This document shows, in pieces, positions 51,790 through 55,346 of a stretch of DNA of 64,000 nucleotides. Position numbers and translations under genes: made by a program. Positions within the stretch are counted from its first letter, which is position 1. Each line of letters opens with the position of its first letter. The notes beneath the pieces are model-generated. The model had not been told where the DNA came from. It worked only from the letters and a program-made list of their open reading frames with translations, and searched no databases. The stretch lies in contig JAUSFB010000045.1 in the NCBI GenBank assembly GCA_030651575.1, forward strand, positions 62,001 to 126,000. Reading direction: 5' to 3'. This DNA comes from Phaeospirillum sp. GTDB taxonomy: Bacteria > Pseudomonadota > Alphaproteobacteria > Rhodospirillales > Magnetospirillaceae.

Positions 51790-52236
51790 CTAACCTCGAC
51801 GGGTTGGCGTGGCCTTGATCGCCTCGGCCAACTCACCCAGTTTCCCCGGTCCCTTCACCTCGCACTCCCACACCACCAGCACGGTCCATCCGAGGGCTTC
51901 AAGCGCTAGGCGCACCTCAATGTCCCGCCTCTGGTTTCGGCCGATCTTCGCTGTCCAGTATTCGGTTCTGGTCTTTGGGATGCGGTGACGAGAACACCCC
52001 TCGTGTCCATGCCAAAAGCAGCCATGGACGAACAGGGCTATCCGCTTGGAAGAAAAGATGACGTCCGGCTTGCCGGGGAGCGCTTTGGCGTGAAGCCGGT
52101 AGCGGAGACCGGCGCGCCATAGCGCCTTTCTGACGGCCAACTCCGGCCCGGTGTCGGCTCCCTTGACGGCCCGCATGACGCGGGACCGTTCGGGATCAAT
52201 CGGAATCGTCTCCGCTGTCTTCGCCATTTTCCACAT
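51790..52236 (-). CDS. vsr: Very short patch repair (Vsr) endonuclease
   Basis: Vsr nicks at T:G mismatches produced by deamination of 5-methylcytosine, starting repair at the sites of a cognate cytosine methylase. It has 148 residues from ATG 52236; ATG 52227 (MAKTAET) is an alternative. RVMRAVKGADTGPELAVRKALW, the catalytic-site LPGKPDVIF and the zinc-binding FVHGCFWHGHEGC are all clear. It overlaps the 3' end of the GIY-YIG gene by 41 bp, so it must be translated from the same message. Confidence 0.95.
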   Translation of the reverse strand: MWKMAKTAETIPIDPERSRVMRAVKGADTGPELAVRKALWRAGLRYRLHAKALPGKPDVIFSSKRIALFVHGCFWHGHEGCSRHRIPKTRTEYWTAKIGRNQRRDIEVRLALEALGWTVLVVWECEVKGPGKLGELAEAIKATPTRRG

Positions 52237-52969
52237 CTACCGAAGCTTCGCCGCCCAATGCCCGGTAACGGCGCTCGGCCAGCCATTGAAGACGCTTCGC
52301 CTGGGTGAGCAAAGTACGGCGAAGACCACCCTGTACCTTGCGCTCTGCGATGACTTGAGACAACCGGCTGATGATCAGCGCGCGCCGGGCATTGCGGAAG
52401 TCCGGGTGGGATCGAATGTCGTGTACCTCGTTGGAGACGATGCAGGCCCGATGCGAAGTCGGCTCCTCGATCTCCACCGTCGGCGCCGGGGGGTCTTTCT
52501 CATTGAGAACGGCCTTGAACTGACTGTTTTCAATGGCGCGCTGGTAAATTAGATCTTCCAGCGCGTCGAGATGCGCCTTGGCCTCCACGAAAGCCGGTGT
52601 TTTTTTGTTTCTGCCGCTGACCTCCTGAAATTGAGGCAGCGGCCACACCTCGATCTCATAGACCTCGAATGGGTCGAGAACGGACATCGCCACGGCGTCG
52701 GTGCGCTGGTTGGTGAGGTGGCGGCGAATACGAGTACGGAGCATTTCGTTCGTCTGACCGACATAGATCGGCTCGCCGTCATAGTCGAAGAAGGCGTAGA
52801 CGCCCCATTTGAAGTTGCCGACCTTGCGGGATTTGCCCGTTACCGGATCGTCAAACGGAGCATCCAGGAAGGCTTCCAGGTTCTTGCGCAGATCTTCCGT
52901 CTCGAACGGAGGAAAATTCACCGCGTCTGGATCGCGCTTGCCTTCTTTTGGGCTTTTCGCCATGTCCAT
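52196..52969 (-). CDS. GIY-YIG nuclease, probable restriction endonuclease of the cassette
   Basis: 257 residues. The GIY-YIG core is GVY (56-58) and YVG (69-71), with Arg in RTRIRRHL (78-83), Glu138 in ALEDLIYQRA and Asn156 in KAVLN, the complete catalytic set of the superfamily. A conserved N-terminal extension (EDLRKNLEAFLDAPFDDP) resembles those of GIY-YIG restriction enzymes such as the Eco29kI group, by pattern only. The C-terminal ~90 residues are basic and could bind DNA. It lies between a C5 methyltransferase and vsr, so restriction is the best guess; a repair role is the alternative. Confidence 0.82.
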   Translation of the reverse strand: MDMAKSPKEGKRDPDAVNFPPFETEDLRKNLEAFLDAPFDDPVTGKSRKVGNFKWGVYAFFDYDGEPIYVGQTNEMLRTRIRRHLTNQRTDAVAMSVLDPFEVYEIEVWPLPQFQEVSGRNKKTPAFVEAKAHLDALEDLIYQRAIENSQFKAVLNEKDPPAPTVEIEEPTSHRACIVSNEVHDIRSHPDFRNARRALIISRLSQVIAERKVQGGLRRTLLTQAKRLQWLAERRYRALGGEASVDVENGEDSGDDSD

Positions 52970-53028
52970 TGCCCCGCTTTGATTGTGCAGGACAATGGAC
53001 CATAGTCAGGCGAAATAGTCGAGGCCCC

Positions 53029-54198
53029 TTATTCCGCCGCGATCGCGGCAGGTAATAGCCCGTTGGCCGCGAGAATGGGTTCAAAGAGATTGGCCGCGAG
53101 ATGACGAACGACCGGCAGGGCCACCCCGTCGCCAGCGATGTGGTAGGCGTCGTGATAGCCGGGGGGTAGCTTGTAGGTGTCGGGCAACCCCATCAACCGC
53201 ACGGCCTCACGCGGCGACAACAGACGCGACCGCACCCGCTGGCCATCCACGACGATGATGCTCTGTCGGGATGACCCGCCGGACGGAGTGCGGAGGCAAC
53301 CGGCGAGGTTATCGAACCGCACTTCTGCGCGCTGGGCCTTCACGCCGGACTCGACGCGGGTGCGCTTGTAGACGCCGCCCACGATGCGACGACCGGCCTT
53401 CTTCGCTTCTTCCACCTTGGCGAGGTGTCGGGCATTCATCATGCCCAGCAACGTCGCCGTCTCGGCTTTGGTGTGCCAATCGCACCCTTCCGGCTCATCT
53501 TGGATAAGGTCGGCGAAGTTGATGGTCATTTCCGGCGTCTCGGGCAGATTCCACCAAACCCACTTCCGCTTGGCATCAGACGACAACAGGTCGTAGGCGC
53601 TAAGAAGCGCCTGGGGATGCCAGGAATCGGATGGACCATCCGCGCGCAGCGCAGAGGGGATAGCCACATCGGCGCGCACCCCCAGCACGAACAGCCGAGG
53701 GCGGGAATGGGGAAGGAACCGCTTGGCGTCCACGATCATCGCCCCGAAGCGATAGTCGGAGCCGGAGAAGCAGGCGGCGATGGCCGCGAAATCCTTGCCG
53801 CCGTTAGACGTGAGCGCGCCGTAGACGTTCTCAAGGACGATCATGCGGGGAGCGCGGCCTTCGTCGCCCAGGCGGCGCATGAGCCGCCAGAACGGCCAGA
53901 AGGTGCCGGATCGGGTCTGTTCGCGGTCGGCCCAATGCCCAATGCCCTCGTAATTGCCAGCCAGAGACAGGTCTTGGCAAGGGAATGAGGCCCAGGTCAA
54001 ATCCACCTGCCCCGGAAGGTCCGAGGTGGAGACGAGGTTCACGTCCTTCACCAGCAGGTGGTCGCCTCCCCAATTGGCCCGATAGGCGGCGGCTTTCATC
54101 TCGTCAAAGTCATTGGCGAAGGTGCAGTTCCACTCTTCGCCGAGGCCAGCATGCGCCATTCCGCCGCCGGCAAAGAACTCGTAGAAATTAGGCATCAC
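53029..54198 (-). CDS. DNA (cytosine-5-)-methyltransferase
   Basis: 389 residues. Motif I is YEFFAGGGMAHAGL, motif IV with the catalytic Cys is ASFPCQDLSLAG, motif VI is VLENVYG, motif VIII is the SRPRLFVLG region. Motifs IX and X are seen in LLSPREAVRLMGLPD and VALPVVRHLA. The variable target-recognition region (about 210-300) names no sequence. ATG 54198 overlaps the RHH gene by 11 bp; the second Met, three bases on, is also possible. It forms an operon with the RHH gene before it and the GIY-YIG and vsr genes after it. Confidence 0.95.
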   Translation of the reverse strand: MMPNFYEFFAGGGMAHAGLGEEWNCTFANDFDEMKAAAYRANWGGDHLLVKDVNLVSTSDLPGQVDLTWASFPCQDLSLAGNYEGIGHWADREQTRSGTFWPFWRLMRRLGDEGRAPRMIVLENVYGALTSNGGKDFAAIAACFSGSDYRFGAMIVDAKRFLPHSRPRLFVLGVRADVAIPSALRADGPSDSWHPQALLSAYDLLSSDAKRKWVWWNLPETPEMTINFADLIQDEPEGCDWHTKAETATLLGMMNARHLAKVEEAKKAGRRIVGGVYKRTRVESGVKAQRAEVRFDNLAGCLRTPSGGSSRQSIIVVDGQRVRSRLLSPREAVRLMGLPDTYKLPPGYHDAYHIAGDGVALPVVRHLAANLFEPILAANGLLPAAIAAE

Positions 54199-54397
54199 GC
54201 TTCCCCTCGTTAAGTCCCAATTCCACTTGCGGCGCCGGCCGCTGGAGAGCGCTCACGGCGCGGTCAATCTTTTCCTGGATGGCTATTGCGATCCAGGTGT
54301 TGCGCGACACGTTACCGGGCAGGCGCTTCCGAAGATCGTCAATCGACTCATATGTCTCGGCGCTTAGCCGAAGATTGGCGCGGTGTTCGTGTTCCAT
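54188..54397 (-). CDS. Ribbon-helix-helix (CopG/Arc-type) regulator
   Basis: 69 residues from ATG 54397. HRANLRLSAETYESIDDLRKRL is a beta strand plus helix A, and NVSRNTWIAIAIQEKIDRAV is helix B of an RHH fold. The reading frame extends upstream to 54460, but the promoter elements lie inside that extension, so the shorter start is preferred. The predicted transcript begins at about this ATG (leaderless). It is the first gene of the methyltransferase/nuclease/Vsr operon and probably its repressor or timing controller; most known controllers of such cassettes are HTH proteins instead. Confidence 0.75.
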   Translation of the reverse strand: MEHEHRANLRLSAETYESIDDLRKRLPGNVSRNTWIAIAIQEKIDRAVSALQRPAPQVELGLNEGKRDA

Positions 54398-54403
54398 CGC
54401 GAC

Positions 54404-54432
54404 ATTATGGCGCCACAATGGCGCCAGTGCAA
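54404..54432 (-). promoter_or_regulatory. Promoter of the methyltransferase cassette with built-in operator
   Basis: On the - strand, TTGCAC (54432-54427), exactly 17 bp, then CATAAT (54409-54404). The spacer holds two perfect palindromes TGGCGCCA (54408-54415 and 54419-54426), 11 bp apart centre to centre, i.e. one helical turn. That spacing is what tandem RHH dimers need. The expected +1 falls at or next to the ATG at 54397. Confidence 0.75.
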
Positions 54433-54533
54433 CACCTAGTTTGCTGACCGCGCGGTTCACACAATTGGTGCCAGAGCAAGCTGATTAGTCAACCGCACAG
54501 CAGGTACATTAAGAGAACACGCGGCGAATGTTG

Positions 54534-54857
54534 TCAAGTTGTTCTGTCCTGTTCTGGTGGTGCCGCGGTGATCCGCCGCACCGCATCCGTCGCGGCAGGG
54601 TCGGCGACAATGGCAAGCTCGGCGACCACGGGATGAAGGCGAACGCCGGGAGCGTCGCCGACCATGAATTCTATGCCCGCATTCTCCAGGGTGCGGCGAA
54701 CGCTTTGAACTGTGTCGTAGTGACCGCGCACCTGCCCGTCGCTAGCCTCCATTCGCTGGATGGTTGGCAATGACACGCCGGATTTCACGGCGAGCGTTTT
54801 TTGGTCCCAGTCGAGCCACAGCCGAGCGGCCTTGATGTGTCTAGCCAGAAAAGTCAC
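54534..54857 (-). CDS. XRE-family HTH transcriptional regulator
   Basis: 107 residues. The HTH is at about 7-62 (IKAARLWLDWDQKTLAVKSGVSLPTIQRMEASDGQVRGHYDTVQSVRRTLENAGIEF, in pieces), with the characteristic short AGIEFMVG-G..GVRL end of this family. The C-terminal ~35 residues are not conserved in type. It lies upstream of, and on the same strand as, the RHH-methyltransferase operon but is separated by that operon's own promoter. A second regulator of the cassette is possible; most relatives are simply abundant in alphaproteobacterial accessory DNA. Confidence 0.82.
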   Translation of the reverse strand: MTFLARHIKAARLWLDWDQKTLAVKSGVSLPTIQRMEASDGQVRGHYDTVQSVRRTLENAGIEFMVGDAPGVRLHPVVAELAIVADPAATDAVRRITAAPPEQDRTT

Positions 54858-54966
54858 GTATCACCCATCAAATATGGTGCACAGCACTTTATTGTATGCG
54901 CCATGTATGGTTATGTATGCATGGAGCATCACATTGCAAGCCCCGCACATCATACGGAACGTTGCC

Positions 54967-55235
54967 ATGCCCCGGATCAAAGGCCAGCATTTCCTCCTCT
55001 CCGCCGAGGCACGCACGCTGTCGCTACGCGACGTGCTGCGCATGACGGACGATCAGGCCATGATGATATTCCGGGCTATCCGCTGGGCCTCGACCGAAGG
55101 CGAGCCAGTCTGCCCGGATTGCGGCTGCCTGGGGTGCTACGAGTACGCCTCGCGCCCTATCTTCAAATGCAAGGGTTGCGGCAAGCAGTTCTCCGTGACC
55201 TCGAGAACGATCTTCGCCGGGCGTAAGCTGACGAA
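54967..55235 (+). pseudogene. Truncated IS1595-family transposase
   Basis: From ATG 54967, MPRIKGQHFLLSAEARTLSLRDVLRMTDDQA leads to the zinc-ribbon CPDCGCLGCYEYASRPIFKCKGCGKQFSVTSRTIFAGRKL (both in pieces), the N-terminal domain of IS1595-type transposases. The similarity stops after about 88 residues. The DDE-type catalytic domain is missing and the frame runs into unrelated sequence. No terminal inverted repeats were found. Confidence 0.8.
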
Positions 55236-55237
55236 CC

Positions 55238-55346
55238 GGGCGCCACACATCCGGCAATTCTCAAACATCATCACACCCGAGAGCGTCGCTTCGCGGAAAT
55301 CGGCGACATCCAGTCTTGCGTGATCGAAGCCGACAAGGGCAGCCAA
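55238..55346 (-). pseudogene. Pentapeptide-repeat protein remnant
   Basis: Reading on the - strand, ARLDVADFREATLSG and MMFENCRMCGARF show the A(D/N)LXX five-residue periodicity of pentapeptide-repeat proteins. Only about 30 residues remain. There is no ATG (the frame opens at a TTG after a stop), and the 3' side joins the transposase fragment. It is probably debris from an insertion or deletion. Confidence 0.5.

What the first reader, a model, noticed from the sequence alone, without database searches (positions are those of the whole stretch)
51790..54432. Four-gene restriction/modification/repair cassette led by a ribbon-helix-helix protein
RHH regulator, C5-cytosine methyltransferase, GIY-YIG nuclease and Vsr lie on one strand in overlapping or nearly touching order. 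Known type II systems with a controller mostly use an HTH C-protein. Here an RHH protein sits in that place, and the putative restriction enzyme is a GIY-YIG protein fused to unfamiliar N- and C-terminal extensions. The combination and order may be an undescribed cassette type.
Basis: partly seen in the sequence, partly recalled or inferred. Interest (0 to 1): 0.72.

Follow-up and report, generated by a model that had tools for sequence, protein, structure and literature searches.

The report
Restriction-modification cassette with ribbon-helix-helix repressor
A small mobile bacterial DNA-defence cassette (a DNA-marking enzyme, a probable DNA-cutting enzyme and a repair enzyme) appears to be switched by an unusual small repressor that binds a paired DNA site at its own promoter, and in many relatives also seems wired to the cell's DNA-damage alarm.

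Summary
Confirmed: on the minus strand RHH (54188-54397), C5-cytosine methyltransferase (53029-54195), GIY-YIG nuclease (52196-52969) and Vsr (51790-52227) lie in tandem. Best reading: a type II restriction-modification cassette. The GIY-YIG protein keeps the nine signature residues I checked in 35 of 35 sequences, matches no Eco29kI-type model, and lies within 2 kb of this methyltransferase in 37 of 40 loci (3 misses are contig ends). Relatives of the methyltransferase carry other nucleases in that slot, matched by PADLOC restriction-enzyme models, so GIY-YIG looks like an exchangeable third nuclease.

The RHH gene is a real controller candidate: 20 of 21 loci with a homologue have GGCGCC-N5-GGCGCC (11-bp period) at the RHH start; the exception has an altered RHH. 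None of 43 loci without it has the pair. In the window's genome the exact consensus pair occurs once, here.

Unexpected: 25 of 42 alphaproteobacterial loci have a perfect LexA-type box upstream (0.6 expected). The window itself has only a one-mismatch box, which chance would give. Cleavage, target sequence and repression are untested. New variant of a known kind.

The parts
54188..54397 (-). RHH (Arc/CopG-like) regulator, 69 aa from ATG 54397; the ORF is open up to GTG 54460
   Evidence: homologues before the MTase in 20 other loci; profile support weak
54408..54426 (.). Predicted RHH operator: TGGCGCCA-N3-TGGCGCCA, two 8-bp palindromes 11 bp apart, ending 10 bp before the RHH ATG; a weaker third subsite (2 mismatches) at 54397-54404
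   Evidence: exact match only once in the 4.23-Mb genome
54404..54432 (-). Possible promoter: TTGCAC (54432-54427, 3 of 6 to the -35 consensus), 17-nt spacer lying within the operator, CATAAT (54409-54404, 5 of 6 to the -10 consensus)
   Evidence: read from the sequence; the consensus scan reported no promoter here, so this is inference
54504..54518 (-). GTTCTCTTAATGTAC: LexA-box-like, one mismatch to GTTCN7GTTC; not significant on its own
53029..54195 (-). C5-cytosine DNA methyltransferase, 388 aa from ATG 54195 (GTG 54198 possible)
   Evidence: PCQ, ENV, RPR motifs; best PADLOC model DruM2 9e-166, MTase_II 6e-95
52196..52969 (-). GIY-YIG nuclease, 257 aa, candidate restriction endonuclease
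   Evidence: G56 Y58 Y69 G71 R80 R82 H84 E138 N156 invariant in 35 of 35; model pLDDT 88
51790..52227 (-). Vsr T:G mismatch endonuclease, 145 aa

Best explanation
A mobile type II restriction-modification cassette. Shown by sequence: gene order, family assignments, conserved signature residues, the linkage of the GIY-YIG nuclease to this MTase family, and the association of the RHH gene with a tandem palindromic site at its own start. Inferred: the MTase marks a C5 target; the GIY-YIG protein cuts the unmarked target; Vsr starts repair of T:G mismatches left when 5-methylcytosine deaminates; RHH dimers bind the two subsites side by side on one face of the DNA, within the promoter or over the start codon, and repress the RHH-MTase-GIY-Vsr message. 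On entering a new cell no RHH is present, so the operon is read strongly with the MTase first; RHH then builds up and sets a low steady level. In many alphaproteobacterial relatives a LexA-type box lies just upstream, so there the cassette is probably also derepressed by DNA damage.
For: MTase within 2 kb of GIY in 37 of 40 GIY loci, the 3 misses being contig ends; tblastn MTase hits in all 14 GIY-bearing plasmid records. Signature residues invariant, 35 of 35. The same MTase family carries DUF4928 or a ~285-aa protein in the nuclease slot; the three of these tested match PADLOC REase_II. RHH: tandem site in 20 of 21 loci, 0 of 43 without RHH; 10 RHH variants under 90% identical all have it while flanks are not conserved. 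Carriage on plasmids down to 9.6 kb. No MTase match at E up to 1e-60 in 16 sampled congeners, as expected of an acquired cassette. LexA-type box in 25 of 42 alpha loci against 0.58 expected; the window's own lexA gene has GTTCTAGGCCCGTTC about 50 bp upstream.
Against: No activity, target or binding data. GIY-YIG resembles UvrC domains (Foldseek E 0.024); among the 50 of 196 matches shown the only one named a restriction enzyme is a 5hmC-specific one at E 0.44. Some relatives have GIY-YIG and the ~285-aa REase together (L016, L017, L082-L084, L088-L090, L098, L100, L110; L006 weakly), so GIY-YIG may be accessory there. RHH profile matches are weak. 43 of 64 loci have no homologue of this RHH. 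The window lacks a perfect LexA box; in its genome the box pattern is not enriched overall (84 hits against 88 for the reversed control), and recA there has only one-mismatch boxes.
Confidence: 0.76

Rival explanations
1. The GIY-YIG protein is not the restriction enzyme but a repair or accessory nuclease (UvrC/Cho-like) that works with Vsr on lesions in methylated DNA, and the MTase is effectively solitary.
For: Closest folds are UvrC GIY-YIG domains; some relatives have a separate REase_II as well; LexA-type boxes upstream fit repair genes; Caulobacter ScmA/VsrA shows a solitary C5 MTase functionally linked to a Vsr-like protein and SOS (PMC12907096, abstract and passages).
Against: GIY-YIG goes with the MTase in every locus with room, while Vsr hits are in only 19 of 40; DUF4928 or the ~285-aa REase takes the same slot in other cassettes; carriage on small plasmids.
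Confidence: 0.15
2. The tandem GGCGCC site is the MTase's own recognition sequence, and promoter methylation rather than the RHH protein regulates the cassette.
For: GGCGCC is a plausible 5mC target (M.BsaHI methylates GRCGYC, PMC2413257, passages); promoter methylation regulates some RM systems (PMC3874152, passages).
Against: The site follows the RHH gene, not the MTase: 20 of 21 with RHH, 0 of 43 without, although an MTase is present in all; the one locus with an altered RHH (L103) lacks it; the 11-bp period of two palindromes suits a tandem-binding RHH.
Confidence: 0.07
3. The HTH gene at 54534-54857 is the true controller (a C protein) and the RHH is incidental.
For: Same strand, just upstream; weak match to PADLOC Control_protein, 1.9e-5.
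Against: No homologue of it (tblastn E up to 1e-2) in the 34 related loci, whereas the RHH gene recurs and overlaps the MTase start. One relative (L086) has another HTH gene nearby.
Confidence: 0.04
4. GAACN7GAAC upstream of relatives is a target of some other regulator, not LexA.
For: LexA binding was not tested; 17 of 42 alpha loci lack a perfect box.
Against: Matches the alphaproteobacterial LexA consensus (recalled) and stands upstream of the window genome's own lexA; the single hit among 22 other loci, L088, is identical over 1.7 kb to the Sphingomonas locus L016.
Confidence: 0.12

Closest known systems
Type II R-M with GIY-YIG endonuclease (R.Eco29kI, R.Cfr42I, R.Hpy188I; PMC4081073, passages)
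   Same: GIY-YIG signature residues including an R-x3-H pair (its presence in Eco29kI is recalled), MTase nearby
   Different: No Eco29kI-family Pfam hit; none of these enzymes among the 50 of 196 Foldseek matches shown; different N- and C-terminal parts; a C5 MTase and Vsr in the cassette
C-protein controlled R-M systems (PvuII, Kpn2I, AhdI)
   Same: Small DNA-binding regulator before the RM genes, on a repeated site at its own promoter
   Different: C proteins are HTH activators/repressors (PMC3874152, passages); here an RHH-like protein, probably a pure repressor, placed before the MTase
RHH repressors Arc, MetJ, omega, PaaR
   Same: Short sites bound side by side (Arc and MetJ site geometry recalled); omega and PaaR regulate toxin-antitoxin loci (PMC3874152, passages)
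   Different: None of these controls an R-M system, as far as recalled and seen; TGGCGCCA operator
Plasmid cassettes RHH-MTase-DUF4928 (pAX22) and MTase plus ~285-aa REase (pTB3)
   Same: Same MTase family; in pAX22 a homologous RHH and the same tandem site
   Different: Different nuclease in the slot
Caulobacter ScmA / VsrA (PMC12907096, abstract and passages)
   Same: Alphaproteobacterial C5 methylation with a Vsr-type protein and an SOS link
   Different: MTase solitary and unlinked to vsrA; relation of ScmA to this MTase not tested

Membership tests
Type II restriction-modification system | C5 MTase with catalytic motifs | tested here: met
   (PCQ 72, ENV 122)
Type II restriction-modification system | Nuclease gene linked to the MTase across genomes | tested here: met
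   37 of 40 loci, 3 misses at contig ends
Type II restriction-modification system | Nuclease cuts the MTase's unmethylated target | not testable with these tools
   no activity data; the slot shared with REase_II families is indirect
GIY-YIG nuclease superfamily | GIY-YIG domain and signature residues | tested here: met
   PF01541 29.8 bits against cut-off 22.6; residues invariant in 35 of 35; UvrC domain fold match E 0.024
Eco29kI-type restriction enzyme family | Match to its Pfam model | tested here: not met
   only PF01541 and a sub-threshold DUF7508 returned at E up to 1
Vsr endonuclease | TIGR00632 above cut-off, similarity to E. coli Vsr | tested here: met
   142.5 bits against 97.85; 1cw0 E 2e-30
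RHH superfamily | Profile match above curated cut-off | tested here: not met
   none for the window protein; RHH_1 0.033 for 1 of 8
RHH superfamily | Strand-helix-helix layout and tandem operator | tested here: inconclusive
   two helices, no strand, in a low-confidence monomer model; operator association strong
HTH C-protein controlled R-M | Controller is an HTH protein | tested here: not met
   no HTH model matches the protein in that place
Druantia type II | DruE/DruF/DruG beside DruM | tested here: not met
   MTase hits DruM2, but the eight proteins scanned are GIY-YIG, Vsr, MTase, RHH, HTH, acyl-CoA dehydrogenase, IS1595 piece and response regulator
LexA (SOS) regulon | Perfect GTTCN7GTTC upstream of the window's cassette | tested here: not met
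   one mismatch only; met in 25 of 42 alpha loci

The most novel reading that the evidence does not exclude
A class of R-M cassettes whose controller is an Arc-like RHH repressor on a tandem TGGCGCCA operator instead of an HTH C protein, moving as an RHH-MTase unit with interchangeable nucleases, and in Alphaproteobacteria also under LexA, so that restriction and modification are raised by DNA damage or by DNA entry.
Probability: 0.55. Interest if true: 0.72.

Novelty: new variant of a known kind. Interest (0 to 1): 0.58.

Why it matters
How R-M systems time methylation and cutting when they enter a new cell is a long-standing question, studied mostly with HTH C proteins and self-repressing MTases. 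An RHH repressor with a defined operator would be another, directly testable answer, and this MTase family is carried on plasmids typed as conjugative (22 of 44 records) or mobilizable (14 of 44). A LexA link would connect restriction to the SOS response, which conjugation and phage infection can trigger (recalled). The GIY-YIG family would also be an additional restriction enzyme family without a model of its own in the libraries searched.

Tried and rejected
Eco29kI-type membership: rejected. Druantia II: rejected, no partners. The HTH gene as part of the cassette: rejected, no homologue in the 34 related loci. Gamma/beta-type (CTGTN8ACAG) and Gram-positive LexA boxes: no enrichment. Promoter consensus scan: nothing found. 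RHH fold search: no meaningful hit. Target sequence: papers on BsaHI (PMC2413257), a mitochondrial R-M (PMC8099122), Methylomonas DH-1 (PMC7720504) and Methylococcus (PMC13390346) were seen in passages only and gave no link; no target is proposed. PMC3346939 (passages): its RHH protein is a partition protein, not an R-M regulator. The ~285-aa protein is not DUF4928-like. The only other genome with an RHH hit in the class sample (L095) is weak and has no tandem site; that search scored at most 15 candidates per genome, so its tally is a lower bound. For one search I left out 3 loci without MTase (L003, L032, L035) and 4 whose upstream was cut (L026, L027, L098, L106). The alpha group was assigned from record titles, taxonomy lines or the 'same class' handle; the window's own class is inferred, no tool named it. 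Near-copies are counted in the locus totals (for example L088 and L016); the 10 distinct RHH variants are the safer number.

Literature: (open-access PMC library only; 23, 83 and 109 listed only part of the papers found). No title or abstract start listed there describes an RHH-controlled or LexA-controlled R-M system; most listed papers were not opened.
Full report
Observation. The four genes are present in tandem on the minus strand: RHH 54188-54397, MTase 53029-54195, GIY-YIG 52196-52969, Vsr 51790-52227. RHH and MTase overlap by 8 nt, GIY-YIG and Vsr by 32 nt, and 59 nt separate MTase and GIY-YIG. Outside lie an acyl-CoA dehydrogenase gene (plus strand, ends 51607), an HTH gene (54534-54857) and a piece of an IS1595-type transposase (54760-55323).

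Families. MTase: DNA_methylase 1.6e-38 and TIGR00675 above cut-off; best PADLOC model DruM2 9e-166, without Druantia partners. Vsr: TIGR00632 7e-42, E. coli Vsr 2e-30. GIY-YIG: PF01541 7.7e-7 above cut-off, no Eco29kI-type match, no PDB sequence match by phmmer. In an alignment of 35 sequences, G56, Y58, Y69, G71, R80, R82, H84, E138 and N156, which I take as signature and active-site residues (assignment recalled), are invariant. AlphaFold2 on 29 sequences gave pLDDT 88, with a GIY-YIG core, an N-terminal helix and a C-terminal helical part. Foldseek's best PDB matches are UvrC GIY-YIG domains (E 0.024); none of 196 matches reached 0.001, and 50 were shown.

Linkage. A scan of the species-genome collection by degenerate patterns gave 34 relatives of the GIY-YIG protein; with the window, four loci from a sample of 385 genomes of the class (5 of 385 positive, the window's genome included) and one viral contig this makes 40 loci. 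An MTase homologue is present in 37; in L003, L032 and L035 the contig ends within 1 kb. In L016-L018 GIY-YIG is divergent, with the RHH gene between. Eight of the MTases seen beside GIY-YIG are distant (32-44% identical to the window's: L019, L029, L037, L039, L087, L096, L097, L099). Vsr hits occur in 19 of 40 (some loci have short flanks). All 14 GIY-bearing plasmid records hold an MTase hit, in L085 and L098 with other genes between. Of 3 phage-collection hits one was fetched (L088), and its DNA is identical over 1.7 kb to the Sphingomonas locus L016. The window's 16 sampled congeners have no MTase match at E up to 1e-60, so the cassette is probably acquired.

Exchangeable nuclease. Relatives of the MTase carry other nucleases in the same slot: DUF4928 (L079-L081, L101-L103) or a ~285-aa protein (L104-L109); one DUF4928 protein and two ~285-aa proteins were tested and match PADLOC REase_II models. 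Some loci have the ~285-aa protein and GIY-YIG (L016, L017, L082-L084, L088-L090, L098, L100, L110). The segment E-x-R-x-D-x3-GCLRT-x2-GGSS-x-Q is present in all 19 MTase rows printed, GIY- and DUF4928-linked alike, but the whole target-recognition region (window residues 181-318) varies from 20 to 68% identity to the window's, so a common target is possible, not shown. In an MTase tree of 51 rows the window's well supported group of six holds, besides the window, two DUF4928-linked MTases, one GIY-linked one and two for which none of these nucleases was found; RHH presence needs 6 changes, at least 4 forced by starred branches.

RHH operator. Two or three copies of GGCGCC exactly 11 bp apart stand before the RHH gene. 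Over all loci with MTase and readable upstream: GGCGCC-N5-GGCGCC in 20 of 21 RHH loci and 0 of 43 others. The exception, L103, has an altered RHH (TLRL for NLRL, SHKTW for SRNTW). The 10 RHH variants below 90% identity that keep the site include alpha- and betaproteobacterial records; flanks and centre are not conserved, the two blocks are (consensus TGGCGCCA-N3-TGGCGCCA; the outer T or A varies in L010, L082, L083, L102). In the window genome the exact pair occurs once, at 54408-54426; in window shuffles 0.15 matches are expected at up to 2 mismatches. In the window it lies between TTGCAC and CATAAT, 17 nt apart; in 7 of the 12 rows it abuts the RHH ATG. This placing suits repression. Close RHH relatives are rare: 2 of 385 class genomes at E up to 1e-6, the window's own and a weak one without the site (a lower bound, since at most 15 candidates per genome were scored). 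Other RHH genes precede the MTase in L007 and L105 (RHH_1 above cut-off) and perhaps in L030/L031 and L085 (below cut-off), so an RHH protein has probably come to this place more than once.

LexA-type boxes. GAACN7GAAC or GTTCN7GTTC, perfect, within 350 bp upstream of the MTase in 25 of 42 alphaproteobacterial loci against 0.58 expected from the rest of the same loci, and in 1 of 22 other loci, L088, which is Sphingomonas-like DNA. It is present in 14 of the 21 RHH loci, upstream of the operator. The window's lexA gene has such a box about 50 bp before its profile match. Against: in the window genome the pattern as such is no commoner than its reversed control (84 against 88), and recA has only one-mismatch boxes. 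The window's cassette has only a one-mismatch box (54504-54518); matches at up to one mismatch occur about 1.3 per kb there, so this is no evidence of SOS control of this copy. L076, from the window's family, has a perfect one, but its MTase frame holds an internal stop and its contig ends there.

Literature. Mruk and Kobayashi (PMC3874152, passages) describe RM controllers as HTH C proteins or MTases with HTH domains, and RHH only for the TA regulators omega and PaaR. Ten searches (listed in Tried and rejected) showed no RHH- or LexA-controlled R-M system in the titles and abstract starts listed; the library is open-access only, so absence from print is not shown. PMC12907096 (abstract and passages) links a solitary C5 MTase, a Vsr-like protein and SOS in Caulobacter.

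Verdict. A type II R-M cassette in all likelihood, with an unusual controller; new variant of a known kind. Most secure: gene content, MTase-nuclease linkage, RHH-operator association. Less secure: GIY-YIG as the cutter. Least: SOS control in the window copy.

Noticed in passing
window 54534-54857 (-): HTH protein with weak matches to Y4mF-type antitoxins and PADLOC Control_protein, directly upstream of the cassette; no homologue in the 34 related loci.
   Followed up: partly
window 54760-55323 (+): Zinc-ribbon piece of an IS1595-type transposase, overlapping the HTH gene; sign of a mobile region.
   Followed up: no
L030/L031 upstream of the MTase; L105 upstream of 2786: L030/L031: a RelB/RHH_9-like gene (below cut-off) preceded by the inverted repeat GGATACAcaaaagTGTATCC. 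L105: a CopG gene (RHH_1 above cut-off) preceded by TGCACCA/TGGTGCA repeats. Possible operators of other RHH controllers.
   Followed up: partly
L012, -104 of the MTase: No RHH gene but a single TGGCGCCA just after the LexA-type box; may be a relic of a lost RHH operator.
   Followed up: no
L088 (MT837621.1): UNVERIFIED 'Bacteriophage sp.' scaffold identical over 1.7 kb to Sphingomonas locus L016; probably bacterial or plasmid DNA.
   Followed up: yes
L084 (Sphingomonas naphthae plasmid), locus 1-2223: SIR2, TIR and toll/interleukin-1 receptor domain genes next to a vsr gene near the cassette: a possible plasmid defence island.
   Followed up: no
L104-L109: A ~285-aa protein with a D...ExK-like stretch (HDY..IELKG in L108) and no Pfam hit (tested for L082's copy) follows this MTase on six plasmids of 6 to 82 kb; PADLOC REase_II for L108.
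   Followed up: partly
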